Origin: a virus
IMG/VR virus record: IMGVR_UViG_3300031957_003032
Coordinates: 1-21,113 of that record
Direction: 5' to 3' (one strand)
DNA: 21,113 nt
The notes beneath the pieces are model-generated. The model did not search any database. It was not told the DNA's origin and saw only the letters and a program-made list of their open reading frames with translations. The translations under genes were made by a program, and so were the position numbers. Shown here in pieces: positions 301 through 21,113 of the stretch (positions are counted from its first letter, which is position 1; each line of letters opens with the position of its first letter).

Positions 301-654
301 GTGCCCCTGTCCCCCTTCGACCAGGAATTCCGCGACAGCGCGCTGCCGGAGATCTATGCCGCCTTTGGCGAGGTCATGTCCTACACGCCGCCGGTCGGGT
401 CTGTGGTCGAAGGGGTTCTGGTCGTCCCTGATGAGCGGCATGCGGAAAACGATACGGGCGACAGCTTTGGCCGGATCCGTTCGGTGGAACGCATCTGGTG
501 GGTCCAGAAGGCCGACGCCAAACTGGTCGCGGCCGGTGTGACGCCCGCCAATGGCGGTCGGTTCACCCGGTCGGATGGGGAAGTCCTGCGCGTGGATGGC
601 GAGCCTTTGAAAATGGACGGTGAGTGGAAGCTCGACCTGGTTGAGGCTTACTGA
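301..654 (+). CDS. Probable head-tail joining protein (lambda gpFII-like)
   Basis: A 117-residue protein with a GTG start at 301, 4 nt after the preceding stop. No strong ribosome binding site is visible, so coupling to the upstream gene is likely. The N-terminus (FDQEFRDSALPEIYAAFGEV) followed by a small beta-rich protein with a WWVQKAD strand resembles the short gpFII-type (Phage_attach) joining proteins, which bind the completed head and provide the surface for tail docking. Its place between a head-region gene and a DUF6441/terminator pair fits that role. The family assignment is from memory of the pattern, and a general head-closure protein is an alternative. Confidence 0.55.
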   Translation: MPLSPFDQEFRDSALPEIYAAFGEVMSYTPPVGSVVEGVLVVPDERHAENDTGDSFGRIRSVERIWWVQKADAKLVAAGVTPANGGRFTRSDGEVLRVDGEPLKMDGEWKLDLVEAY

Positions 655-660
655 CCGGCC

Positions 661-1386
661 ATGGCGCTCTCTGCCTTGTCATCGGGCGGCGCGGATTTCG
701 CCCTCGATGTCGATATCGTTGAAAGCCTGTCGGCGGATATCGATGCCACGCTGGAAGAATTGGCCGAGGTGGCCATGTCGGCCGCCGATGCGGTCGAGGC
801 TTGGGGCAAGGGCGAATTGCGCGCCGATACGCGCGGCGCTCTGGGCAACAAGGTCGCCAATGCCTGGCGCTCGCGGGTTTGGCCCAATCGGGGTGGACAC
901 GCATCCGTCGCGCCGTCGATCGGATGGTGGTCGAACGCCCCACACATCATCCGGGCCTTTTCCGATGGCCTTACCATCCGGGCCGGGGAGGGGAAATATC
1001 TCCTAATTCCGACGGAGAATGCCCCGCAATTCGGCTATGGGTTCGGCCAATCCGGTCGGATGCGCAAAGCCCGGGCCTATGCCCTGACGATGGCTGAGCG
1101 CCGCTTCGGCCGACTGCGATATGTGAAGGCCAAGGGCCGGGATCTGATCCTGGTTCTGGCGGACAAGGTCCAGCGCAACAAGCGCGGTTATGGGCGCGCC
1201 AGCGCGTCCACCTTGCGGCGTAAGAAACACGAAAACGGTGTGGTCATGTTCATCATGGTTCCCGCCGCCACCATGCCCAAAACGATCGACCCGGATGCCA
1301 TTGCCGACGCAATCGGTCGGGAAGGCCTGGAACGCTTCGCGCGGGCCTTCCGAGATGTCGCCACCCGCCATTACGGCACGGAGTAA
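661..1386 (+). CDS. DUF6441 family phage neck/tail protein
   Basis: A 241-residue protein starting at ATG 661, 6 nt after the previous stop. The central region matches the pattern I know for DUF6441: an alpha-helical N-terminus, then NAWRSRVWP, a W-(S/x)-AP-HIIRAF segment, a KYLLIPTENAP strand, a basic middle part (about residues 135-195), and a hydrophobic VVMFIMVPA strand with a helical tail. These proteins are common in alphaproteobacterial prophages and sit between head-closure and tail-terminator genes, where a neck or tail-completion role is presumed but not proven. Nothing looks truncated. The family call is fairly secure; the exact role is inferred from position. Confidence 0.7.
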   Translation: MALSALSSGGADFALDVDIVESLSADIDATLEELAEVAMSAADAVEAWGKGELRADTRGALGNKVANAWRSRVWPNRGGHASVAPSIGWWSNAPHIIRAFSDGLTIRAGEGKYLLIPTENAPQFGYGFGQSGRMRKARAYALTMAERRFGRLRYVKAKGRDLILVLADKVQRNKRGYGRASASTLRRKKHENGVVMFIMVPAATMPKTIDPDAIADAIGREGLERFARAFRDVATRHYGTE

Positions 1387-1397
1387 GGACGTATTTC

Positions 1398-1868
1398 ATG
1401 ACCACGCCCATCGATCATGACGAGGCCCGCGAGGCTGTGGAGACCGTGATCAATGCGGCGCTGGCATTGCTGGATGATCCGCTGGAATTGGTGGTGCGGG
1501 ATCCGCGCTATCTCGATGCGGCCCAGACTGAAGACAAGGTGCGAGCGCGCGCCGTCCTGGCGGATGGAAAAGTGCGCGAAACAGCATTCTTGCAGGGTAT
1601 TCCTCCGACCTGGGATCTGGAGGCGCTCTTCATTTTCGGTGTCGAAGGCCTGGGCGGGGCGGATGCCGATCGCTGGGCCCGCGTGTCAGAGCTTCGCAAG
1701 GCCGCATCAGCGGCCATTGCGGCGGATCCGCGCCTGGGCGGTGTGGTGACCTATGCCTCGGTGCGTGATTTCGAGCCGGAAGACCTCAAAACCCCGGGCG
1801 TGGATATCTCCACGCTCAATTCACTCACCATCGCCGTTGAATTTGTCAGCCTCACACAGACCGGCTGA
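1398..1868 (+). CDS. Probable tail terminator / tail completion protein
   Basis: A 156-residue protein starting at ATG 1398, with an AAGGA ribosome binding site about 9 nt upstream. It opens with a helix (HDEAREAVETVINAALALL), continues as an alternating alpha/beta protein and ends with a strand (SLTIAVEFVSLTQTG). This is the size and secondary-structure rhythm of lambda gpU / HK97 gp10-type terminators, which cap the tail tube and join it to the neck. No signature motif is visible. The call rests on size, the final beta strand of the type IAVEFVSL, and position two genes before the tail tube protein. Confidence 0.5.
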   Translation: MTTPIDHDEAREAVETVINAALALLDDPLELVVRDPRYLDAAQTEDKVRARAVLADGKVRETAFLQGIPPTWDLEALFIFGVEGLGGADADRWARVSELRKAASAAIAADPRLGGVVTYASVRDFEPEDLKTPGVDISTLNSLTIAVEFVSLTQTG

Positions 1869-1891
1869 TTTCATCCACATAGGAGGCCGTC

Positions 1892-2104
1892 ATGGCAGCG
1901 AAAAACAAGGCCGAAGATGCGGCCAAATCCGCCCCGAAACCCTTCCAGGCGGTCTTGCTGGCGGATTTGGACGGAATCGGCACGGCCGGGTCCGTGATTT
2001 CTCTCGATCCGGCGGTGGTGAAGTCCAAATCGCTGGAGGTGGGCAAGCATTATCGCAAGGCCTCCAAGCGTGATTTGAAAATCGCCGGGCTCGCGGCCGG
2101 CTGA
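1892..2104 (+). CDS. Small basic protein of unknown function, before the tail tube gene
   Basis: A 70-residue protein starting at ATG 1892 with a perfect AGGAGG ribosome binding site 5 nt upstream, so it should be well translated. It has a lysine/alanine-rich N-terminus (MAAKNKAEDAAKSAPK), a short beta-rich middle (FQAVLLADLDGIGTAGSVISL) and a basic end. Such small proteins often sit between the terminator and major tail genes in alphaproteobacterial phages, but I know no function for this one. It is followed by a 66-nt gap holding a palindrome. The gene itself is likely real given its strong ribosome binding site and codon use. Confidence 0.6.
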   Translation: MAAKNKAEDAAKSAPKPFQAVLLADLDGIGTAGSVISLDPAVVKSKSLEVGKHYRKASKRDLKIAGLAAG

Positions 2105-2120
2105 TCCGTCATTTCTGCCC

Positions 2121-2137
2121 GCCGAACGCCGTTCGGC
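2121..2137. repeat. Palindrome GCCGAACGCCGTTCGGC, copy 1
   Basis: This 17-base inverted repeat (8-bp arms around one base) lies 17 bases after the stop of the small protein gene and 34 bases before the tail tube gene. The same sequence with G as the central base occurs at 17743-17759, a degenerate copy at 20811-20827, and an incomplete copy inside the tape measure gene near 6202-6214. As RNA it could fold, but no U-tract follows directly (CCGGTCCTTTCTCG), so a plain intrinsic terminator is unlikely. An mRNA-stabilising hairpin or a protein-binding site are both possible. Confidence 0.6.
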
Positions 2138-2170
2138 CGGTCCTTTCTCGTCTAAATCAGGAGCAGTCCC

Positions 2171-3139
2171 ATGCCTCATCTCATCGGGCGCGATGTCCAG
2201 CTGTATACGTTGGGCCAGTCGGCGGCGGGCACGGCCGCCAGCGGCAATTTCAACCCGGTTTCCCATTACGGCTTCACGCCGCGCCGGACAGACCCTCTCG
2301 TCGAAGATCCGCTGATCGGCGTCAGCCTGGCCAATGTCATGGATCCGCAGCCGCCGGCCGAAGGGCTGGTCGAGGCCGGCTTCGACATCGATCTTCCGCT
2401 CTGCTTCAATCAGCTCGGCTGGTATCTGCCGCAATTGTTTGCGGTGACGGCGCCCGATGGTTCCGATCCCTACACCCATGTCTTCGACAGCTCGGCCCGC
2501 GCCCATGCCGGCCAGAGCCTGGCCTGGCAGGATGGCGAGGATTGGCGCCTGGCCAATACGGTCACCTGGTCGCGCATGGAGATTAGCTTCACGCCGGAAG
2601 CCGGCCGCCGGCGCATCAGCCTGCAGGGCAAGGCGTCCAATATCACCACGCCGGTGTCCGACCCGACCGGCACCCCGGCATCCCAGCTGGCCCTTAACAC
2701 CTTTGCCGGCGGTATCGGTGCTTCGGTCCTCTACAATGGCGTGGCGGTGGCCAATCTGATGGGTGGATCCCTGCGCTTTGAGCGCCAGCTGATCGATGAC
2801 CGCCCGATCCCGCGCCCCGATCGCACGGCGAAAGAATTCATCCCCGATGTCAATCCGACAATCGGCGGCACGCTGGACCTTCGCCCGGTGGATAATACCT
2901 GGTTCGACATCGCGGCGGCCAAGGATGTGGACGATCTCAAGATCGCCTTTGCGACGGACGCCAATAACAGCCTGACGATTGATCTGCCGGCCGTGCGGTT
3001 TGAGCCGAAACAGCGCGCCGCCTCCGGCCAGGGCGTCCGCACGGAAAGCTATGAGATGCGTGCCGAGCAAACGGCCGTGGCGCACGCGCTGACCGCAACC
3101 CTGATCAATTCGATCGCTTCCTATCCGGGTGAGGCATGA
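2171..3139 (+). CDS. Phage tail tube protein (major tail protein)
   Basis: A 322-residue protein starting at ATG 2171 with AGGAG about 9 nt upstream. The sequence fits the Phage_tube_2 type of tail tube protein: an N-terminal strand with GRDVQLYTLGQS, repeated beta-rich segments, a WSRMEISF strand, a GGSLRFERQL segment and a beta-rich end (NSLTIDLPAVRFEPKQ). It would polymerise as stacked hexameric rings forming the non-contractile tube around the tape measure protein. No sheath gene is present, which agrees with a siphovirus. The stop overlaps the next gene's start (ATGA at 3136-3139), so translation of the chaperone is probably coupled to that of this abundant protein. Confidence 0.8.
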   Translation: MPHLIGRDVQLYTLGQSAAGTAASGNFNPVSHYGFTPRRTDPLVEDPLIGVSLANVMDPQPPAEGLVEAGFDIDLPLCFNQLGWYLPQLFAVTAPDGSDPYTHVFDSSARAHAGQSLAWQDGEDWRLANTVTWSRMEISFTPEAGRRRISLQGKASNITTPVSDPTGTPASQLALNTFAGGIGASVLYNGVAVANLMGGSLRFERQLIDDRPIPRPDRTAKEFIPDVNPTIGGTLDLRPVDNTWFDIAAAKDVDDLKIAFATDANNSLTIDLPAVRFEPKQRAASGQGVRTESYEMRAEQTAVAHALTATLINSIASYPGEA

Positions 3140-3627
3140 TCCACATTTCCACGGGCCCGGCTGATCCGGGCGAGATTCTCATCAAATTTCCGGAATACGC
3201 CCAAACCATCAATCGCGAGCGGTGTGTTCCGGAGATCCGTCTTTCCCGGCCGACCACGCCCTCGCGCAAGGCGGCCGAAATGGAAGCCTGGCGCATGGTT
3301 CCCGTGCCGAACCAGGACGAAAGCGATGAGGATTTTGCGGGCCGTGCGCAGCCCGTCCTGGCCGCGCTGGGTTTTGACAAAGTGGTCGAGAGCGCCGGAC
3401 TGGAAAGCGGCCTGCAGGCCGCCGCCCAGACGCTGGACCTGGTGAAGCTGGTTCAACTGCACATCCTGGACTGGAAGCATTTCGGCGATGCCCAATCCAA
3501 AAAGGCGGTCGAACCGACACCCATGGCCGTCCAGGCCCTGATTGTCGGGCATCCGGCGGTCGCCAAGAAAATCGAGCGCGAGATCAATCGAGCGCTTGGC
3601 CAGGTGGTGCGTGAGGGAAACGGATAG
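3136..3627 (+). CDS. Tail assembly chaperone, short form (lambda gpG-like)
   Basis: A 163-residue protein that starts at ATG 3136 inside the tail tube stop (ATGA). It is alpha/beta at the start and mainly helical later (about residues 75-160), like other gpG-type chaperones. It sits exactly between the tube and tape measure genes, the universal place for the G/GT pair that keeps the tape measure protein soluble and recruits tube subunits. The family diverges too far for motif proof, but the last codons contain a GGGAAAC slippery site in the correct register (codons GGA AAC at 3616-3621), followed by a stem. Most ribosomes would stop at TAG 3625 and make this form. Confidence 0.75.
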   Translation: MIHISTGPADPGEILIKFPEYAQTINRERCVPEIRLSRPTTPSRKAAEMEAWRMVPVPNQDESDEDFAGRAQPVLAALGFDKVVESAGLESGLQAAAQTLDLVKLVQLHILDWKHFGDAQSKKAVEPTPMAVQALIVGHPAVAKKIEREINRALGQVVREGNG

Positions 3628-3661
3628 GCGCCACTCTCTCCTGGGTGCATGAGGGTGGCGC
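3615..3661 (+). promoter_or_regulatory. Programmed -1 ribosomal frameshift signal
   Basis: The slippery heptamer G GGA AAC occupies 3615-3621, in register with the zero frame (GAG GGA AAC GGA TAG). A 6-nt spacer (3622-3627) contains the zero-frame stop TAG. A stem then follows: 3628-3638 pairs with 3651-3661 over 11 bp with one G-U pair, closing a 12-nt loop. The -1 frame is open from here to the stop at 4008-4010. Lambda uses GGGAAAG for the same purpose at the same locus. The expected product is a 291-residue G-T fusion (162 residues plus 129). Confidence 0.85.
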
Positions 3662-4010
3662 GAAGAATTGCCTGGACTGTGTGCGCTCTGGTGATGCCTG
3701 CGCCAAGGGTGGGCTTGTCCGCGATATCCGCACCGAGGGGCGGGAAGTTCCGCCTTCGCATCTCTGCCCGTTCACAGAGCATCAGCCGCGCACCGTGGAA
3801 GGCGCGCTGGTCCTGACGCTGCTGCGCAATGGGTCCTGCCTGAAACGGGGCGGGTGGGGGTTTGAAGGGATCGACATCGATCTCGCCCTGCGCCGTCTGG
3901 CCACCATGACACCGCGCATGCCCGAATGGCTGGCGCTGGAATTATTGGACCATGCCGAGGCGGGCATTTTTGCCGGCCTTGCCCTGGCCCGCGAAGCAAA
4001 AGGGGAGTGA
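3621..4010 (+). CDS. T extension of the tail assembly chaperone (made by -1 frameshift)
   Basis: This 129-codon -1 frame has no convincing start of its own: the GTG at 3645 lacks a ribosome binding site and lies inside the frameshift stem-loop. It is best read as the C-terminal part of the long chaperone (gpGT-like) translated from 3136. In lambda the T domain binds tube subunits while G binds the tape measure. The extension opens with a Cys-rich part (C-X2-C-X6-C-X21-C, from NCLDCVRSGDAC to SHLCPF) and ends in helices (MPEWLALELLDHAEAGIFAG). The Cys spacing suggests, but does not prove, a metal site. Its stop lies 2 nt before the tape measure start. Confidence 0.75.
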   Translation, partial: RIGATLSWVHEGGAKNCLDCVRSGDACAKGGLVRDIRTEGREVPPSHLCPFTEHQPRTVEGALVLTLLRNGSCLKRGGWGFEGIDIDLALRRLATMTPRMPEWLALELLDHAEAGIFAGLALAREAKGE

Positions 4011-4012
4011 GC

Positions 4013-6340
4013 ATGGCGCAGCGCAAAAATGCCGGCAGTGTCGTCATCAAGCTCGATCTGCGCGGACAGGAAGAGCTGAAACGCCGTCTGGAAGAATTGG
4101 GGCCGACTGGCGAGCGGGTTTGGCGCGATCTCAAGCGTGGTGCGAAACCGGCCGAACAGGGCTTCAAGGCGGTCGACGCCGCACGCCAGCAGCTGCAGGG
4201 CGGGGTGGATGAGCTGGCGTCACGCGCCGGGCCTCTGGGCCAGTTCCTCACCTCGATCGGGCCGTGGGGACTTGCGGCGGCCGCCGGTCTCGGCGTGCTG
4301 GCCCTGGCCCTGCGCGAAGTCTTCGTCTTGATGGAGCGCAGCCGCGAGACGGCCTTCTGGGCGGAGGAGCTGGAGAATGCTGCTGCTGCGGCCGGCATGA
4401 TGGAAGACCGCGTTTTGTCTCTGGGCTCGGCCGTCCAGCTTGCTGGCGGTGACTTCAATGCGGCCCTGGCAGGCCTGGAGGAGTTTTCCAAACGCATCGG
4501 CGAGTATCGGGCGACAGGCCAGGGGGAAGGGCGGGATGCCTTTGACGCGCTGGGCCTGCGTGATTTGGTCGATAGCGGAGCAGATGCCACCACTGTTCTC
4601 GATGCCGTTCTGGAACGCATGCGCGAGATTCAGGATCCCGCGCGGCGGCTGGCGATAGCGGACAAGCTGGGCCTACGCGAAGCCGCGCCGCTACTGCAGC
4701 GCAGTGCGGACGATATGGAGCGGATCCTTGGGGCGGCTGAGAACATTAATGCTGCATTCTCCGAGCAGGTCTTGCAGGATTTTGCCAATGCTGGAGAAGC
4801 CATTCGCGAGGCGCAGCTCAGGCAGGATCGCGCGAGGCAACTCCAGTCTCTGGCTACAGTCGATTTGGAGGTGTCACGTCAGCAGGCCTTGGCGCGTATG
4901 GAGGAAGCTAGAACGGCCGTCGGGTGGAACCGGGTGGCGCTGGAGGAACGTTCCACTGAAATACTTGAGATGCAGCGCGATGTAATGCTTCGAACGATCG
5001 AGCGCGTTTCCAGTGCGCCTGCGCAGTACGCCGAGCTGGGTATCCATGTTGCCGACCTACGGCTTGAGTTGGAGCAGTTGAACGTCGCGCTCGAGGAGCA
5101 GGCGCGAATCCTGAGAACGACCCAATTTGACGTTCCGACCACCTTCGGCAACGGTTCCCGCGAAATATTGGAGGCGATGCAGGCGCGCTGGTCGGCTGAT
5201 GCCAGTCGGAATGAAATCGACCTCGAGCGCCGGCGTGAGCTGGAAGCTCTGTTCGAGCAAGCCTATCGCGCCACGCTGACGCCAGTGCAGGAGCTGGCCC
5301 AGTATGAGGCCGATCTCAACGCTATTCGCGAGGCGGGCATCACGATCGGTGAAGACAATATCGAAATGACCGAAGGGATGGTCCGGCAATTGGTCGCCCT
5401 GCGTGCCGAGGCCCTCGGTTTGCATCCCAAGCTGGAGCAGCTCTCAGAGGATGAGCGCAAGCTGGCCGGTGCGATTGCCTCGACTTTCGACCCGCTGGAA
5501 GCGCAAAAACAGCTGCTTGAAGAATTGACCACCCCGGCCAGTGAGGCCGCCGATCGGCTGATGCGCCTGTTCGCCCTGTGGCGCGAGGCGCCGGAGCATG
5601 CCGATGTCATCATTGCGGAGATCCGGGCCGTCAAAGAGGCGCTGCACGGGCCGGAGGATGACAATGAAATCCGCATGGAGAGCCGGTTCGAGGGTCTCCG
5701 CAAAATGGCCGAGGAATACGAGAATGTGATCGATGTGCTCGATCGCGCCGGGACCGACACGCTGGGCGGCATCCATGATGGGCTTGTTGATATTGCCACC
5801 ACAAGCGGCGATGTCGGCGATGCCTTTGAGGACATGGGGCGTCGCATAATGCGGACGCTCGCGGATATCGCGATCCAGCGCTACATCACCGGCCCGCTCT
5901 CCGGCGTTCTGGAAACCGTGTTTGATTCCTGGACTGACACCGCGTCGGGAAAAACAGGAACCCTGCCCAATAACGACACCGGCGCCAGTTATCGCTTCAA
6001 GGGAAATCCCGGTCTCGACAATAATGTTCTGTCGTTGAATGGCGAGCCCTTCGCAAACGTGTCCCGCAATGAGGATCTGCACATCATCCCGGCGCTCAAC
6101 ACGATGGGTGGCCGGGCTGGTGGATCCATGGCGCTTGAATTGCCGCCCCTGGATATCGTCCTCAAGGATGAACGATCCGGCGGGGGCAAGGCCCGGGCCA
6201 GCGAACGGCGTTCGGCGGATGGCGGCCGGCAATTGCAGATCCTGCTCGAAGAAAATGTCGGCGGCTTGCTGGGATCGGGCGGGTTTGATGCGGAAATGGA
6301 AGCTCGCTATGGCCTCGTGCCCAAGCCGGGGAGGCGTTGA
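4013..6340 (+). CDS. Tail tape measure protein (lambda gpH-like C-terminus)
   Basis: A 775-residue protein starting at ATG 4013 with an AGGGGAG ribosome binding site just upstream; an in-frame earlier start at 3926 is rejected because it lies within the chaperone extension. Residues 1-75 are helical and charged; about 83-107 form a hydrophobic Gly/Ala-rich segment (GPWGLAAAAGLGVLALALRE) typical of tape measures that later enter or cross membranes. About 250-400 is predicted coiled coil. Residues about 582-640 (GLVDIATTSGDVGDAFEDM, IMRTLADIAIQRYITGPL) match the lambda-type C-terminal tape measure domain. At about 0.15 nm per residue the tail would be near 115 nm (inference). Codons in about 4640-5160 include several rare here (AGA, ATA, CTA), hinting at mosaic exchange. 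Confidence 0.85.
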   Translation: MAQRKNAGSVVIKLDLRGQEELKRRLEELGPTGERVWRDLKRGAKPAEQGFKAVDAARQQLQGGVDELASRAGPLGQFLTSIGPWGLAAAAGLGVLALALREVFVLMERSRETAFWAEELENAAAAAGMMEDRVLSLGSAVQLAGGDFNAALAGLEEFSKRIGEYRATGQGEGRDAFDALGLRDLVDSGADATTVLDAVLERMREIQDPARRLAIADKLGLREAAPLLQRSADDMERILGAAENINAAFSEQVLQDFANAGEAIREAQLRQDRARQLQSLATVDLEVSRQQALARMEEARTAVGWNRVALEERSTEILEMQRDVMLRTIERVSSAPAQYAELGIHVADLRLELEQLNVALEEQARILRTTQFDVPTTFGNGSREILEAMQARWSADASRNEIDLERRRELEALFEQAYRATLTPVQELAQYEADLNAIREAGITIGEDNIEMTEGMVRQLVALRAEALGLHPKLEQLSEDERKLAGAIASTFDPLEAQKQLLEELTTPASEAADRLMRLFALWREAPEHADVIIAEIRAVKEALHGPEDDNEIRMESRFEGLRKMAEEYENVIDVLDRAGTDTLGGIHDGLVDIATTSGDVGDAFEDMGRRIMRTLADIAIQRYITGPLSGVLETVFDSWTDTASGKTGTLPNNDTGASYRFKGNPGLDNNVLSLNGEPFANVSRNEDLHIIPALNTMGGRAGGSMALELPPLDIVLKDERSGGGKARASERRSADGGRQLQILLEENVGGLLGSGGFDAEMEARYGLVPKPGRR

Positions 6341-6705
6341 TGGCTGAAACCTGGCCTGCCAGCCTGCCGGCGGATCCGCGCCGGGAAGGCTATAAGCCGC
6401 CGCGTGCGGGCAAGAATGTCCTCTCTTCGCAAACCGATGGCGGACGGCCAAAGCGCCGGCGCCTGTTCACCGCCGTGCCGGCCTTTGTCGAAATCTCCTG
6501 GCGCTGGTCTGTCAGCGATTGGGAAACCTACTGGCTGCCGTTCCTTCACACCACGCTGGCCGATGGGGCCCTGGCTTTCACCTGGACCGAACCGCTGACC
6601 GGCGAAGAGTATGAGGCACATATCGTGGACGGTGCCCAGGGCGTCGATACCGCGATGGGTCCGGGCCACAATGTCATCGTCTCGGTGCGTCTTGAGGTAA
6701 TCTGA
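6340..6705 (+). CDS. Minor tail protein (lambda gpM-like / distal tail)
   Basis: A 121-residue protein. ATG 6340 overlaps the tape measure stop (TGATG); an in-frame TTG at 6337 is less likely. The core VEISWRWSVSDWETYWLPFL, then GALAFTWTEPLTGEEYEAHI, resembles the small gpM-type minor tail proteins (a helix with a conserved W/F, then a G-A-x-x-F strand), which bind the tail end of the tape measure and begin the tip complex. The gene order tape measure, this gene, DUF1833, NlpC/P60, TipJ copies lambda H-M-L-K-J, which supports the call. The stop overlaps the next start (ATGA). Confidence 0.6.
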   Translation: MAETWPASLPADPRREGYKPPRAGKNVLSSQTDGGRPKRRRLFTAVPAFVEISWRWSVSDWETYWLPFLHTTLADGALAFTWTEPLTGEEYEAHIVDGAQGVDTAMGPGHNVIVSVRLEVI

Positions 6706-7208
6706 TGCCCTCTCAAACCTATCTGGAAGCCGCCGTCGCGCAGGAAACGGACGAGGTCTATCTCGCTCTGGTCACCATATCGCACGAGGATCTGGCGGCT
6801 CTGGGTGTGGACTATCCCGATCTGGGTGTGTCGGGAGGTGCGCTGCGCTTTGTCAATAATACTCAGGACATCACCAGCCGGGGCGATGTGTTCAAGGCTT
6901 ATGGGTTTGATTTGTCCTTGCCGGGACAGGGGGAAGGCGAGCGTCAGGTTGCCACGCTGACGATCGACAATGTCGATCAGCGCATCGGCCTGACCTTGCG
7001 GTCGCTGCAATCGCGAGCGGATGTCCTGGTGGAGATCGTGCTGGCTTCGGATGTGGACACGGTCGAGCAGACCTTGCCGGAATTCCAGCTGGTCGGCAGT
7101 GATATCGACCGGCTGCAGGTGTCCGGTCAGCTGGCGGTGGATATTGATGAGGAGGAGCCTGTCACCTCCTATGATTTCACGCCGCGCACGGCGCCGGCCT
7201 TGTTTTGA
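6705..7208 (+). CDS. DUF1833 family minor tail protein (lambda gpL position)
   Basis: A 167-residue beta-rich protein starting at ATG 6705 inside the preceding stop. Features matching DUF1833 are the N-terminal TDEVYLALVTISH strand, ALRFVNNTQDITSRG, a FDLSLPGQGEGERQVATLTI segment, and the ending SYDFTPRTAPALF. DUF1833 proteins occupy the gpL slot of the tail-tip gene order in many siphoviruses. Lambda gpL carries an iron-sulfur cluster, but this protein has no cysteines, so it should not. Its stop shares bases with the TTG start of the peptidase gene (TTGA). Good confidence in the family; the role is from position. Confidence 0.7.
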   Translation: MPSQTYLEAAVAQETDEVYLALVTISHEDLAALGVDYPDLGVSGGALRFVNNTQDITSRGDVFKAYGFDLSLPGQGEGERQVATLTIDNVDQRIGLTLRSLQSRADVLVEIVLASDVDTVEQTLPEFQLVGSDIDRLQVSGQLAVDIDEEEPVTSYDFTPRTAPALF

Positions 7209-7648
7209 TATCAGCCTCTGCAGGGTGGTGGCGGCCTTATCTGCCAACGCCCTATGTCTGGCATGGCCGGGATCCGAGCGGCTGGGATTGTTGGGGCGTG
7301 GTGGCCTGGTGCCGCCCGCGCTATTTCGGTCGCCCGGCAGAGGATCACGGCGATCTTTATTCTGCCGAGCGGCCACCTTCTCAGTCGGCGCGGTTCGCCC
7401 TCCAGGCGGATTTGATCGAGTCCCATGTGGCCGCCTGGCATCGTGCTGATCGCGTGCCGGGCAGTGTCGTCCTGTTCAATATCAAAGGCCGCCCCGTACA
7501 TGTCGGCCTTTACATCGGCCAGGGCAGTTTTCTTCACGCCCATGCGCCGGCGCGATACCGGCCGGGCGAACCCGCCACCCATCTTGAGCGCCTGGACGAT
7601 CCTGTCTGGGCTTCCCGCATCGAAGGTTTCTATGACCGCACCGCGTGA
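7205..7648 (+). CDS. NlpC/P60-type tail-tip peptidase (lambda gpK-like)
   Basis: A 147-residue protein. The only reasonable start is TTG 7205, overlapping the DUF1833 stop, with no ribosome binding site, so it probably depends on translational coupling. The catalytic motif is clear: TPYVWHGRDPSGWDCWGVV with Cys29, then His99 in GRPVHVGLYIG and His111 in FLHAH as likely partners. This is the NlpC/P60 papain-like fold that cleaves peptidoglycan stem peptides; in tail tips it helps the tube cross the wall during DNA entry. The domain fills the whole protein, so the JAB domain present in lambda gpK is missing. The end overlaps the tip gene by 17 nt. Confidence 0.8.
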   Translation: MISASAGWWRPYLPTPYVWHGRDPSGWDCWGVVAWCRPRYFGRPAEDHGDLYSAERPPSQSARFALQADLIESHVAAWHRADRVPGSVVLFNIKGRPVHVGLYIGQGSFLHAHAPARYRPGEPATHLERLDDPVWASRIEGFYDRTA

Positions 7649-17821: not shown

Positions 17822-18775
17822 ATGCTGGACTGGATCCGGAACACTTTCTCCGGCTCGATCACCTGGACGGTCGCGGCCGTCCTGGTCGCGCTGGCCCTTC
17901 TGTTTGCGCCGGTGGCCTGGGGCGAGCCGCTGGCCGGCGGCATTCTCTGGAAGGGCCTGACGGCGCTGGCGGGCTTCGTCCTCTGGATGTTCGGTCTGCG
18001 GCTGTTCTTCTGGATCCGCTCCATCTCGGTCTTCCAGCCGGAAACCTTGGAAGCGATCCGCAAGGAGCCCTTTGCCTCGGCGATCTGGCTGGGCATGGTG
18101 GCGATCTCTCTGGCCATGATCACCGGCGCCGCAATGGGCCAGCCGCCGACGCCGGCCGCCTGGCCGGGCGGCGTGGCGCATTCGCCCGCCCTCATCGCCG
18201 CTGACGCGCGCGATGAGCCTGACGAGACACTCGCGGGCATGGAGGCCTGGCCCGCGCGTTTCGCGGCCTGTGAGCCCTACAGGGCCGATATCGAGCGGGC
18301 CGTGGCCGCCTATTGGGGCGCGTTCCAGCATCCCGATGCCTGGGCCGCGCAGATCTACCAGGAGAGCCTGTGCCGATCGGCGGCGATATCGCCGGTGGGT
18401 GCGGCCGGTCTGGCGCAATTCATGCCGGCGACTTGGGCCGAAGCGCAGGCGCATTTCGGCATCCGCGCCAGCCCGCATGATGACATCGCGATCGAGGCGG
18501 GCGCCTGGTACATGATGCGCCAGATGGCCGTCTGGCGCTCGCCCCGGCCGGAGGTGGAGCGCTGGCGTCTGGCGCTGGCGAGTTACAATGCCGGCGCGGG
18601 CAATATCATCCGCGCCCAGCGCCTGTGCGACGGCGAGCGCGACTGGCGCGAGATCCGCGCCTGCCTGCCGGCCGTCACCGGCCATCATGCCAATGAGACC
18701 CGCACCTATGTCGATCGCGTCCAGCGCTGGTGGGGCGAGCTGGATCCGCGCGGGGCCGGGGAGGCGGGGCTGTGA
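17822..18775 (+). CDS. Membrane-anchored lytic transglycosylase (SLT domain), probable endolysin
   Basis: A 317-residue protein. ATG 17822 has GGAGG 6 nt upstream; the longer in-frame ORF from 17558 is rejected because it crosses the terminator and previous gene. Three hydrophobic spans (about residues 13-33, 41-66, 86-105) precede a linker and an SLT domain (about 145-310). SLT motifs are clear: IYQESLCRSAA with catalytic Glu181, GAAGLAQFMPATW, and ALASYNAGAGNI. It would cut the glycan strand of peptidoglycan. Usual phage SLT endolysins lack three membrane spans, so the N-terminus may anchor, export or even act as a holin-like part. The stop overlaps the next start (GTGA). Confidence 0.85.
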   Translation: MLDWIRNTFSGSITWTVAAVLVALALLFAPVAWGEPLAGGILWKGLTALAGFVLWMFGLRLFFWIRSISVFQPETLEAIRKEPFASAIWLGMVAISLAMITGAAMGQPPTPAAWPGGVAHSPALIAADARDEPDETLAGMEAWPARFAACEPYRADIERAVAAYWGAFQHPDAWAAQIYQESLCRSAAISPVGAAGLAQFMPATWAEAQAHFGIRASPHDDIAIEAGAWYMMRQMAVWRSPRPEVERWRLALASYNAGAGNIIRAQRLCDGERDWREIRACLPAVTGHHANETRTYVDRVQRWWGELDPRGAGEAGL

Positions 18776-19101
18776 GCCTCATCGAATTGCTTCTCGCCTT
18801 GGTCGCGGCGCACGCGCTCTGCGACTATCCCCTGCAGGGCGACTTCCTGTCCCGTGCCAAGAATCGGATGCAGCCTCTTCCGGGTGTGCCCTGGTATCAG
18901 GCGCTCGGCGCTCATGCCTCGATCCATGGCGCAGCTGTGGCGCTGCTTACGGGCGTCTGGTGGCTTGGCATGGCGGAGGCGGTGTCTCACTTCCTCATCG
19001 ATGACATGAAGTGCCGGGGGCGCATTTCATTCAATGCCGATCAAGCACTGCACCTAGCCTGCAAACTGGTCTGGGTGGGCATTGTTTGGGTGTCGGCATG
19101 A
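18772..19101 (+). CDS. DUF3307 family membrane protein
   Basis: A 109-residue protein. The GTG start at 18772 overlaps the transglycosylase stop. The opening LLLALVAAHALCDYPLQGDFLSRAKN is the DUF3307 signature (L-x-A-H-x-L-x-D-(F/Y)-x-L-Q followed by K), then HASIHGAAVALL and a GMAEAVSHFLIDDMKCRG segment with conserved His and Asp. Two or three hydrophobic stretches suggest an inner-membrane protein. DUF3307 proteins occur in bacteria and in phages; their biochemical function is not established as far as I know. In this spot, between an endolysin and spanins, a lysis role such as holin is possible but only inferred. Confidence 0.7.
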   Translation: MSLIELLLALVAAHALCDYPLQGDFLSRAKNRMQPLPGVPWYQALGAHASIHGAAVALLTGVWWLGMAEAVSHFLIDDMKCRGRISFNADQALHLACKLVWVGIVWVSA

Positions 19102-19430
19102 TTCAGGCCTCCACCGCGTCCTGCTCTGCCGTCTTCATTCCCTATGAGGAATGGGAAGACGGTGCCGACCACCCGCCCGGCGCCTTCACCATTGAAGTGT
19201 TCAAGGATGGCTCTCGCGAGATGCTGTTCAAGTGCCCGTCCGGAGACGGGGCAGAGTGCGGCATCAAGCTGCGTCCCTGCGCCGAGCAGCCGAGCTGGGA
19301 ATTCAATGACGATCTGGACAGCCCGACCCTGCACCCTTCCGTGCACCGGCAATACAGGCGAACGGACACGGGCGGCATGGGGACGATCTGGCACGGCTGG
19401 CTGAAAAATGGAGAGTGGAAGTCATGCTAG
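19098..19430 (+). CDS. DUF6527 family protein
   Basis: A 110-residue protein. ATG 19098 overlaps the DUF3307 stop (ATGA). The pattern fits DUF6527: FKCPSGDGAECGIKLRPC, then PSWEFNDDLDSPTLHPSVHR and a final WHGWLKNGEWKSC. The paired Cys residues and the W-H-G-W-L-x-N-G-E end are the family's hallmark; a small metal-binding fold is plausible. It is frequent in prophages near lysis genes but has no known role. It overlaps the i-spanin start by a few bases, so it is embedded in the lysis operon. Confidence 0.65.
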   Translation: MIQASTASCSAVFIPYEEWEDGADHPPGAFTIEVFKDGSREMLFKCPSGDGAECGIKLRPCAEQPSWEFNDDLDSPTLHPSVHRQYRRTDTGGMGTIWHGWLKNGEWKSC

Positions 19431-19846
19431 GCAAACTGTCCGCCGGCGTGCGCGGCGCCCTGTTCGGTGTGGCCGTGGCCGGCGCTTTCGGTCTGGGCTC
19501 GACGGTCTTTTCCTATCAGCTCGGCAAGGCGCATGAGCGCGCCGCTTCGGCGCTGGTCAATCTCGATGCGGTGGTCGAGCGCGTCGAGGAAGAGGCTGGC
19601 CGCCTGGCCGGCGTGGCCGAGACGGCCGAGGTGCGGCTGGCCGCCGATCGCGCCTGGCGCACGGAGCAGAGCGCGCAATTCCTGGAAGAGATGCGGAGCC
19701 TGACGGCGTCCGCACAAGACCTGCGGAGACAATTCGATGCGAATCCTGATGGGGCCTGTCCTGGCCTGCCTGATGATGTGCGGATGTACAACGCCGCGTT
19801 CGGTCTCACCCCCGCCGAGCCTGGAGCCGCAGATCCGGGAGATTGA
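19424..19846 (+). CDS. i-spanin (Rz-like inner membrane spanin subunit)
   Basis: A 140-residue protein starting at ATG 19424; an in-frame GTG at 19415 is the alternative. Residues about 9-34 form one membrane anchor (RGALFGVAVAGAFGLGSTVF), and about 35-105 form a long charged helix (VVERVEEEAGRLAGVAETAE), the usual plan of Rz. Spanins fuse the inner and outer membranes as the last step of lysis in Gram-negative hosts. The strongest support is the next gene, a lipoprotein that starts within this gene's 3' end in another frame, as Rz1 does in Rz. Sequence identity is not expected to be high in this family. Confidence 0.8.
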   Translation: MLGKLSAGVRGALFGVAVAGAFGLGSTVFSYQLGKAHERAASALVNLDAVVERVEEEAGRLAGVAETAEVRLAADRAWRTEQSAQFLEEMRSLTASAQDLRRQFDANPDGACPGLPDDVRMYNAAFGLTPAEPGAADPGD

Positions 19847-20066
19847 GCGGATCGTCCAGGAGCAGATCGAAACGCCGCCGGCCGAATGCCTGGCCCTGCC
19901 GCCGCCGATCGGGGCGATGCCGGACTGGCAGGACTGGCGCCAGCGCGCCGCCGACATGACCGAAGCCGCGCAGATCCGCGACAGGGTTATTGCGGCGTGT
20001 CAGGGCTGGTGGGGGCGGGTGGAGGCGGAGAGGGTTAGATCGGCCAGAGGGCCAATAATGCACTGA
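19737..20066 (+). CDS. o-spanin (Rz1-like outer membrane lipoprotein)
   Basis: A 109-residue protein starting at ATG 19737, with GGAGA about 7 nt upstream, beginning 110 nt before the end of the i-spanin gene in a different frame. The N-terminus is a lipoprotein signal (MRILMGPVLACLMMCGCTTP), with lipidation likely at Cys17 (MCGC). A Pro-rich linker (PPPSLEP) follows, then helices with Trp/Asp-rich segments (MPDWQDWRQRAADMTEAAQI). It is longer than lambda Rz1 (60 residues). The partly nested pair strongly indicates a two-component spanin. Its end overlaps the convergent minus-strand gene by 32 nt. Confidence 0.8.
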   Translation: MRILMGPVLACLMMCGCTTPRSVSPPPSLEPQIREIERIVQEQIETPPAECLALPPPIGAMPDWQDWRQRAADMTEAAQIRDRVIAACQGWWGRVEAERVRSARGPIMH

Positions 20067-20412
20067 CCGATCCGGCGACAAAGCAGGCGCCTGCTGTCGT
20101 GGCCATAAACCCTAGCGCCATTGTGTCCGGCTTCTCATCCCGATCATCATCAAGGTACTCCAGATACTGAGCTACTTCGCGACCGCGTAGGAAGATGGTG
20201 AAAAAGCAGGCAATGACCCCACCCAAAAAGATCCAGGCGGGGTAGGATGGCGGTGGCGAGGTGGATACCGATGAGATCGCCGCTGCGACATTGATTGTGG
20301 TCAGCAAGCCAGCGCCATTGCCAGCTATCAACAGGGTTGCCAGAAGCTTGGCGGTGTCCTGCCGCCAATCATGTGCGCGACGTTTATGCTCTTCGAGATC
20401 GCTTGTAGGCAT
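20035..20412 (-). CDS. Three-helix membrane protein, candidate prophage moron
   Basis: A 125-residue protein on the minus strand, starting at ATG (20412-20410), with AGGGA about 6 nt upstream. A charged N-terminal helix (residues 1-20) is followed by three hydrophobic spans (about 22-46, 58-76, 98-123); the first contains an N-G-A-G-L-L motif common in small prophage membrane proteins. It opposes the late operon, has a good sigma70-type promoter of its own, and overlaps the o-spanin end by 32 nt. This arrangement is typical of morons expressed in the lysogen, for example superinfection-exclusion or lysogenic conversion proteins. The exact function is unknown. Confidence 0.7.
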   Translation of the reverse strand: MPTSDLEEHKRRAHDWRQDTAKLLATLLIAGNGAGLLTTINVAAAISSVSTSPPPSYPAWIFLGGVIACFFTIFLRGREVAQYLEYLDDDRDEKPDTMALGFMATTAGACFVAGSVSALLALWPI

Positions 20413-20438
20413 GGCAGTCCCTGCTCCATTTCTCTGCC

Positions 20439-20467
20439 ATTCAAGATCGAGATGGATAGCGTGTCAA
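20439..20467 (-). promoter_or_regulatory. Sigma70-type promoter for the minus-strand membrane protein gene
   Basis: On the minus strand TTGACA (20467-20462) is a perfect -35 element. After exactly 17 bp comes TTGAAT (20444-20439), a 4 of 6 match to the -10 consensus. Transcription would begin near 20432, giving a leader of about 20 nt before the ATG at 20412. The perfect -35 and ideal spacing in GC-rich DNA are unlikely by chance at this place. Confidence 0.65.
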
Positions 20468-20480
20468 AGCCGCCATTGAA

Positions 20481-20506
20481 CCGGCCGGGCTTGACCGCCC
20501 GGCCGG
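20481..20506. promoter_or_regulatory. Perfect 10-bp inverted repeat next to the moron promoter
   Basis: CCGGCCGGGC (20481-20490) and GCCCGGCCGG (20497-20506) are perfect complements around the loop TTGACC. It lies 14 bp upstream of the minus-strand -35 element and 54 bp before the small + strand gene, so it occupies the divergent intergenic region. It may be an operator, or a hairpin in a transcript from either side. The loop TTGACC could serve as a weak + strand -35, but no good -10 follows. Confidence 0.5.
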
Positions 20507-20559: not shown

Positions 20560-20808
20560 ATGGATCAGGATGCACCCGAACCCATTTCCCCAAACACTCA
20601 AAGAGATCCGGACGTCGCCTTTGACGACCTGGTCTTCGATATCGCCTTCGCCATGCGGCACAAGCTGCCGGCATCGCGGCGTGACGTGAAGTCGGCCGAC
20701 AATGCCGAATACATCGCGCGGCGGGTGGCAGAGATGCTGCAGCAGCGTTTCAGGCTGGAGCGGAAGGAGCCGCCGCCGCTTCACTCCACGCCGGACATGC
20801 GGGGCTAG
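20560..20808 (+). CDS. Small phage or accessory protein of unknown function
   Basis: An 82-residue protein starting at ATG 20560 with GGAGG 7 nt upstream; the longer in-frame reading from 20371 is rejected because it overlaps the divergent promoter and gene. The N-terminus is acidic and disordered (MDQDAPEPISPNTQRDPD), then a helical body (FDDLVFDIAFAMRHKLPASR, AEYIARRVAEMLQQRFRLE). No membrane span. It is the last + strand gene before attR, divergent from the moron gene, so it may also belong to the accessory end of the prophage. I do not recognise a family. Confidence 0.55.
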   Translation: MDQDAPEPISPNTQRDPDVAFDDLVFDIAFAMRHKLPASRRDVKSADNAEYIARRVAEMLQQRFRLERKEPPPLHSTPDMRG

Positions 20809-21022
20809 GCGCCGAATGGCGTCCGGTCAGCGATAGGGGATGGGGTTTTCGACCGGTCCGAAGGGCCAGGCCCAAATCAGGAAAGCGGCGAGTGCGGCGC
20901 AGGAAATCGCCCACAAAATCAGCGCCCATCCATTCCGACGCACCCAGTAAGTGATTGATAGTGCAGCCCGTGAACAGACGCGGAACCGTCGGAATAACGC
21001 TGATTTTATTGCTGAATGTCGC
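20809..21022. other. Gap between the last gene and attR
   Basis: This stretch of 214 bases has no convincing gene. At 20811-20827, three bases after the preceding stop, is GCCGAATGGCGTCCGGT, a degenerate copy (three changes) of the recurring palindrome. On the minus strand, 20943-20827 could encode a 38-residue peptide from GTG with a strong hydrophobic span (WALILWAISCAALAAFLIW), but no ribosome binding site is seen. The remainder is more AT-rich near the attachment site, as expected at a phage end. Confidence 0.5.
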
Positions 21023-21069
21023 GATTGTGGATCTAGAGGTCCCCCGTTCGAACCGGGGAGGCGGTACCA
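21023..21069 (+). other. attR: 3' fragment of a tRNA-His gene (prophage right end)
   Basis: The sequence is the 3' part of a tRNA. The anticodon loop TTGTGGA (21025-21031) has anticodon GTG (21027-21029). A 3' anticodon stem TCTAG, a variable loop AGGTC, a T-arm CCCCG-TTCGAAC-CGGGG (21042-21058), an acceptor strand AGGCGGT (21059-21065), A73 and an encoded CCA (21067-21069) follow. The 5' side of the anticodon stem mismatches (CGCGA where CTAGA would pair), and nothing before it folds as a D-arm or acceptor strand, so the 5' half is absent. This is the duplicated tRNA end left by integration. The fragment's orientation places the intact tRNA at the other prophage end, left of this window. The exact core limits are inferred. 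Confidence 0.8.
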
Positions 21070-21113
21070 TTTTCCTTTAAAATTCAACATATTACTGATT
21101 TTGGTCGATTGGT
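21070..21113. other. Host DNA downstream of the tRNA-His attachment site
   Basis: These 44 bases are clearly AT-richer than the prophage and contain no gene. TTTTCCTTT directly after the CCA end resembles the U-rich tail of the original tRNA transcript. If attR is placed correctly, this is chromosomal sequence and should adjoin the intact tRNA-His in strains without the prophage. Confidence 0.5.

What the first reader, a model, noticed from the sequence alone, without database searches (positions are those of the whole stretch)
20035..20467. Lone minus-strand membrane gene with its own promoter in the late region
All other convincing genes run in the opposite direction. This gene has TTGACA, a 17-bp spacer and TTGAAT, a short leader, three membrane helices, and a 3' end overlapping the o-spanin gene by 32 nt. 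These are the marks of a moron expressed in the lysogen. It is the best candidate in the window for an undescribed superinfection-exclusion or host-modification function. During lytic growth, convergent transcription would also produce antisense RNA against the spanin mRNA end.
Basis: partly seen in the sequence, partly recalled or inferred. Interest (0 to 1): 0.6.

Follow-up and report, generated by a model that had tools for sequence, protein, structure and literature searches.

The report
Orphan membrane gene beside prophage attachment site
A temperate phage of a Maricaulis-like marine bacterium appears to carry one small three-helix membrane protein gene running against its late genes near the prophage end, anatomically like known genes that let a resident phage block competitors, but its function is unproven and its relatives are almost unknown.

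Summary
An open frame of 125 codons lies on the minus strand (20035-20412), with three hydrophobic segments, a 32-nt tail-to-tail overlap with the o-spanin gene and a perfect TTGACA 17 bp from TTGAAT. The frame is very likely a real gene: none of 77 other non-genic frames has even two such segments; its G+C is about 10 points below its neighbours; and two weak chromosomal relatives in the same bacterial order resemble each other and share its GNGAxLLxx(F/I)N motif. The promoter is weaker than stated: TTGAAT lacks the A normally essential in a -10 box. The gene lies about 610 bp from a displaced 3' part of a tRNA-His gene, so it sits at the prophage edge, the usual place for lysogenic-conversion cargo. 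The host is Maricaulis-like. P22 sieA has the same anatomy (lone counter-strand gene tail-to-tail with a late gene, own promoter, three membrane helices), but no sequence similarity. No homologue was found in other phages. Best reading: a moron-like inner-membrane protein made in the lysogen, with superinfection exclusion the single most likely function, untested. New member of a known kind; modest interest.

The parts
20035..20412 (-). Gene for a 125-aa protein (P0001): charged N-terminus, membrane helix 1 with GNGAGLLTTIN motif, short uncharged loop, helix 2, acidic loop of about 22 residues, helix 3
   Evidence: distant relatives
20439..20467 (-). Promoter-like site TTGACA - 17 nt - TTGAAT (the -10 lacks A at position 2); leader of about 20 nt to ATG 20412
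   Evidence: not listed by the strict scan
20413..20428 (-). Possible ribosome-binding sequence GGAG/AGGGA upstream of ATG 20412
   Evidence: sequence
20481..20506 (.). Perfect 10-bp G+C-rich inverted repeat with 6-nt loop upstream of the promoter, no T-run on either side; role unknown (operator, insulator or atypical terminator)
   Evidence: RNA fold z = -2.2
19737..20066 (+). o-spanin-like ORF, partly nested out of frame in the i-spanin gene; 3' end overlaps the membrane gene by 32 nt
   Evidence: only a weak PHROG match (E 0.84)
19424..19846 (+). i-spanin (Rz-like) gene
   Evidence: PHROG 1403 E 2.1e-5
20560..20808 (+). 82-aa ORF divergent from the membrane gene, no known family
21023..21070 (+). 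3' part of a tRNA-His gene (from just before the anticodon loop to CCA) without its 5' half: phage attachment site
   Evidence: 94% identical over 48 nt to the intact tRNA-His gene of M. maris; no intact tRNA in the window

Best explanation
The gene is a moron: late-acquired cargo at the right edge of a temperate siphovirus-like phage of a Maricaulis-like bacterium, transcribed against the late operon so that it can be read from its own promoter while the late genes are silent. Its product is inferred to be an inner-membrane protein with cytoplasmic N-terminus, three helices and periplasmic C-terminus. The most likely action is superinfection exclusion of the P22 SieA type: sitting in the inner membrane and interfering with passage of DNA from related incoming phages. 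Shown: the open frame, its hydrophobic pattern, composition, position, overlap and the lack of detectable phage homologues. Inferred: that it is coding, its membrane topology and its expression in the lysogen. Not shown: any exclusion activity.
For: Frame and overlap. Membrane pattern not found in 77 other frames. G+C about 0.56 against 0.64-0.70 in the lysis genes and third-position G+C 0.61 against 0.72-0.87. Attachment site in a tRNA-His gene 610 bp away. Perfect -35. P22 sieA has the same layout: minus strand, 22 bp tail-to-tail from late gene 16, own promoter, 162-164 aa with three predicted membrane domains, in the inner membrane, blocks DNA injection (PMC10883804). Two distant relatives on bacterial contigs suggest a mobile or host-derived family.
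Against: No similarity to P22 SieA, to PADLOC models, to Pfam or NCBIfam above cut-off or to solved structures by sequence or fold (best E 0.04). The -10 box is poor. No terminator-like site was found after the gene. The two relatives are not in a phage or defence context as far as seen. No homologue in any phage, so no sign of selection for a phage function.
Confidence: 0.33

Rival explanations
1. Lysogen-expressed membrane protein with another conversion role: it alters host envelope physiology, transport or stress behaviour and not phage entry.
For: Same anatomy as the best explanation; the only relatives found (L039 after a thymidylate synthase gene, L043 beside an IS3-type transposase) lie on bacterial contigs without phage genes in view.
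Against: No family name or neighbouring gene points to any particular host pathway.
Confidence: 0.32
2. A regulator of lysis timing (antiholin or spanin modulator) placed beside the lysis genes, possibly helped by antisense overlap with the o-spanin message.
For: Adjacent to the lysis genes, 32-nt convergent overlap, small multi-helix membrane protein.
Against: Opposite strand, so not made with the late genes; no match to holin families; no equivalent in 36 other phage or prophage loci compared.
Confidence: 0.1
3. A decaying or very young orphan gene with no selected function, carried at the prophage edge after an imprecise excision or recombination.
For: Almost no relatives, low codon adaptation, imperfect promoter, edge position next to the attachment site.
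Against: The frame is intact with a start codon, a ribosome-binding-like sequence and a clear membrane pattern; relatives keep the GNGAxLLxx(F/I)N motif.
Confidence: 0.18
4. Not a gene: a chance open frame in G+C-rich DNA.
For: Length alone is unremarkable: 21% of shuffles give a frame of 120 or more residues in the same 493-base gap.
Against: Hydrophobic pattern absent from 77 other frames, best codon score of six frames, relatives scoring beyond hydropathy-preserving shuffles (0 of 2000 reach it).
Confidence: 0.07

Closest known systems
SieA of Salmonella phage P22
   Same: Lone counter-strand gene tail-to-tail with a late gene, own promoter, three membrane helices, small (P22 record; PMC10883804)
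   Different: No sequence similarity; 125 against 164 aa; no exclusion shown; P22 is a podovirus whose ejection proteins are the target, whereas this window has siphovirus-type tail genes with a tape measure protein
HK97 gp15 and other moron-encoded membrane exclusion proteins
   Same: Small membrane protein in a moron setting (from my own knowledge; the gp15 paper is cited in PMC10883804 but was not read)
   Different: Sequence comparison with gp15 was not made; its place among the tail genes differs, by my recollection
Uncharacterised chromosomal membrane proteins L039:1435-2025 and L043:1423-1854
   Same: Charged N-terminus, first membrane helix with G(N/H)GAxLLxx(F/I)N motif, second helix; about 30% identity to P0001 and 42% to each other over the shared region
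   Different: 196 and 143 aa; one has a long insert before the last helix; bacterial contigs without phage genes seen; similarity to P0001 weak (E 5.8e-4 and 0.006 per genome)

Membership tests
Moron / lysogenic-conversion gene (descriptive class) | Extra gene absent from related phages | tested here: inconclusive
   No homologue in viral or genome collections and none in 36 loci compared; but the two phages with the same tail genes are cut off before this region, so an empty site could not be shown
Moron / lysogenic-conversion gene (descriptive class) | Own promoter | tested here: inconclusive
   Perfect -35 with 17-nt spacer, but -10 TTGAAT lacks A at position 2; not in the strict scan
Moron / lysogenic-conversion gene (descriptive class) | Own terminator | tested here: not met
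   No terminator-like site on the minus strand after the gene; the strong hairpin at 20481-20506 lies upstream and has no T-run. Not all genes called morons have one, so the class is used here only descriptively
Moron / lysogenic-conversion gene (descriptive class) | Base composition unlike the neighbours | tested here: met
   G+C 0.56 against 0.64-0.70; GC3 0.61 against 0.72-0.87
Moron / lysogenic-conversion gene (descriptive class) | Expressed in the lysogen | not testable with these tools
   Needs RNA-seq of a lysogen
SieA family | Sequence similarity to one of the three SieA types | tested here: not met
   BLASTP with P22 SieA (type A) E 45; alignment score equals shuffles. Types B and C not tested
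SieA family | Three membrane helices | tested here: met
   Hydropathy and model m0c3528bf76f9
SieA family | Blocks DNA injection by related phages | not testable with these tools
   Needs plating and injection assays
Holin families (Pfam, PHROGs) | Match to a holin profile | tested here: not met
   No holin family in Pfam or PHROGs scans of P0001
Known anti-phage defence proteins (PADLOC) | Match to a model | tested here: not met
   0 families at E <= 10

The most novel reading that the evidence does not exclude
P0001 is the first seen phage member of an undescribed family of small membrane proteins (motif GNGAxLLxx(F/I)N in the first helix) that act as inner-membrane exclusion proteins in marine alphaproteobacteria, convergent with P22 SieA in gene layout and topology but unrelated in sequence.
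Probability: 0.2. Interest if true: 0.5.

Novelty: new member of a known kind. Interest (0 to 1): 0.3.

Why it matters
If it excludes other phages, it would be a SieA-type exclusion gene in a Maricaulis-like bacterium, where I know of none described, and would suggest that this gene layout (lone membrane gene tail-to-tail with the last late genes at the prophage edge) can be used to look for exclusion genes without sequence similarity. If it does not, it is one of many uncharacterised prophage cargo genes.

Tried and rejected
Close relatives of P0001 in viral contigs, genome contigs, phages and plasmids: none (phage hits at E 7 are tail fibre or RNase H noise). Weak profile hits (Pfam TMEM128 E 4e-4, DUF1761, CNNM, all below cut-off) rejected as membrane-helix noise. 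L038 had the best E (4.5e-5) but aligns within a long frame of another kind and lacks the motif; rejected. L046/L068 is a 419-aa frame, set aside as another family (it looks DUF445-like to me; not scanned). Motif pattern hits L047 and L048 lie opposite a large structural-type frame; chance. 0 of 398 genomes hold the strict motif pattern. The DUF3307 neighbour gene brought 30 viral loci, but only that gene is shared, so no help with synteny. The tail protein found one genome (M. maris), whose contig ends before the right end of the prophage. L039 used as query found no viral or plasmid relatives. Fold searches gave no match better than E 0.04. Rfam: only sub-threshold hits. Further weak matches (L072, L074, L077, L078) score near chance level and were not pursued.

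Full report
What is there. The window is an IMG/VR virus record of 21,113 bases. Tail genes at 301-7648 are 55-79% identical in protein to a prophage of Maricaulis maris DSM 4734 and include tape measure and other siphovirus-type tail genes. At the right end come a lytic transglycosylase gene, a DUF3307 membrane protein, a DUF6527 protein and an i-spanin/o-spanin pair, all on the plus strand. The minus-strand frame 20035-20412 follows, its 3' end overlapping the o-spanin-like frame by 32 nt.

Is it a gene. Length alone does not show it: 21% of shuffles of the 493-base gap hold a frame of 120 or more residues. Its content does: three hydrophobic segments at a cut-off of 1.4, where none of 77 other non-genic frames of 80 aa or more has even two; the best codon score of the six frames, though low in absolute terms; and distant relatives (below). 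G+C is 0.56 against 0.64-0.70 in the preceding lysis genes, and third-position G+C 0.61 against 0.72-0.87. The charge pattern (positive N-terminus, uncharged first loop, charged second loop) suggests N-terminus in, C-terminus out; this is my reading of the sequence. A single-sequence AlphaFold2 model gives three long helices at modest confidence (pLDDT 69.6, pTM 0.45).

The promoter. TTGACA at 20467-20462, a 17-nt spacer and TTGAAT at 20444-20439 are present. The -35 is perfect, but the -10 has T where nearly all sigma-70 promoters have A, so the strict scan passes it over. A lenient count finds one such site in the window against 0.25 expected. The promoter is therefore possible, not established. 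A perfect 10-bp G+C-rich inverted repeat lies just upstream at 20481-20506; it has no T-run and its role is unknown.

Position. Bases 21023-21070 match the 3' part of the M. maris tRNA-His gene at 94% over 48 nt, while the 5' half is absent. I read this as the displaced 3' end left by integration (or the attP of a free genome), so the gene lies about 610 bp inside the prophage edge, between the lysis genes and the attachment site, a usual place for conversion genes.

Relatives. No close relative was found in viral contigs, genome contigs, phages or plasmids. In 299 genomes of the order, two weak matches stand out, L039 (E 5.8e-4 per genome) and L043 (E 0.006). Neither is significant alone after 299 genomes. 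But they resemble each other (42% identity over 57 residues, E 1e-9 in one direction of the pair comparison, 4-5e-8 by phmmer among 4187 frames) and align to P0001 over the same stretch, with the motif GNGAxLLxx(F/I)N in the first helix, GH in place of GN in L043. The P0001 alignments score above all of 2000 shuffles that keep the hydropathy profile; as both were picked as best hits from many genomes, this overstates the case somewhat. They are bacterial genes, one after thymidylate synthase, one beside an IS3-type transposase (gene names by my reading of the translations). The family seems rare; P0001 has no match above cut-off in Pfam, NCBIfam or PADLOC and none significant in PHROGs, and L039 and L043 none in Pfam or PHROGs. 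In 36 phage or prophage loci compared by a crude gene call, no lone opposite-strand gene with two or more helices was found; the two hits (L003, L027) are the DUF3307 gene itself, by position. The phages that share the tail genes are cut off before this region, so an empty site could not be shown.

How it most likely works. The layout is that of P22 sieA: minus strand, 22 bp tail-to-tail from late gene 16, own annotated promoter, product of 162-164 aa with three predicted membrane domains, in the inner membrane, blocking DNA injection by P22-like phages (PMC10883804). P0001 has no sequence similarity to P22 SieA, so it is not filed in that family; it may work like it. I put the gene being real at about 0.93, moron-like expression in the lysogen at about 0.6, and superinfection exclusion at about a third.

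Verdict. It is a new member of a known kind, with an undescribed protein family as the only unusual element.

Noticed in passing
window 20827-20943 (-): 38-codon minus-strand frame from a GTG with one strongly hydrophobic stretch (VRRNGWALILWAISCAALAAFLIWAWPFGPVENPIPYR); may be a second small membrane cargo gene. No clear start signal, no family.
   Followed up: partly
window 20481-20506: Perfect 10-bp inverted repeat CCGGCCGGGC-TTGACC-GCCCGGCCGG between the two divergent frames, no T-run on either side.
   Followed up: partly
window 21023-21070: 3' part of a tRNA-His gene without its 5' half: attachment site, 94% identical to M. maris tRNA-His.
   Followed up: yes
window 18775-19101: DUF3307 membrane protein gene in the lysis region, shared at up to 75% identity with 30 viral contigs in which no other window gene tested was found around it: seemingly a mobile late gene.
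   Followed up: partly
window 19101-19430: DUF6527 family gene (Pfam E 6.7e-14, PHROG 15183 of unknown function) between the DUF3307 gene and the spanins.
   Followed up: no
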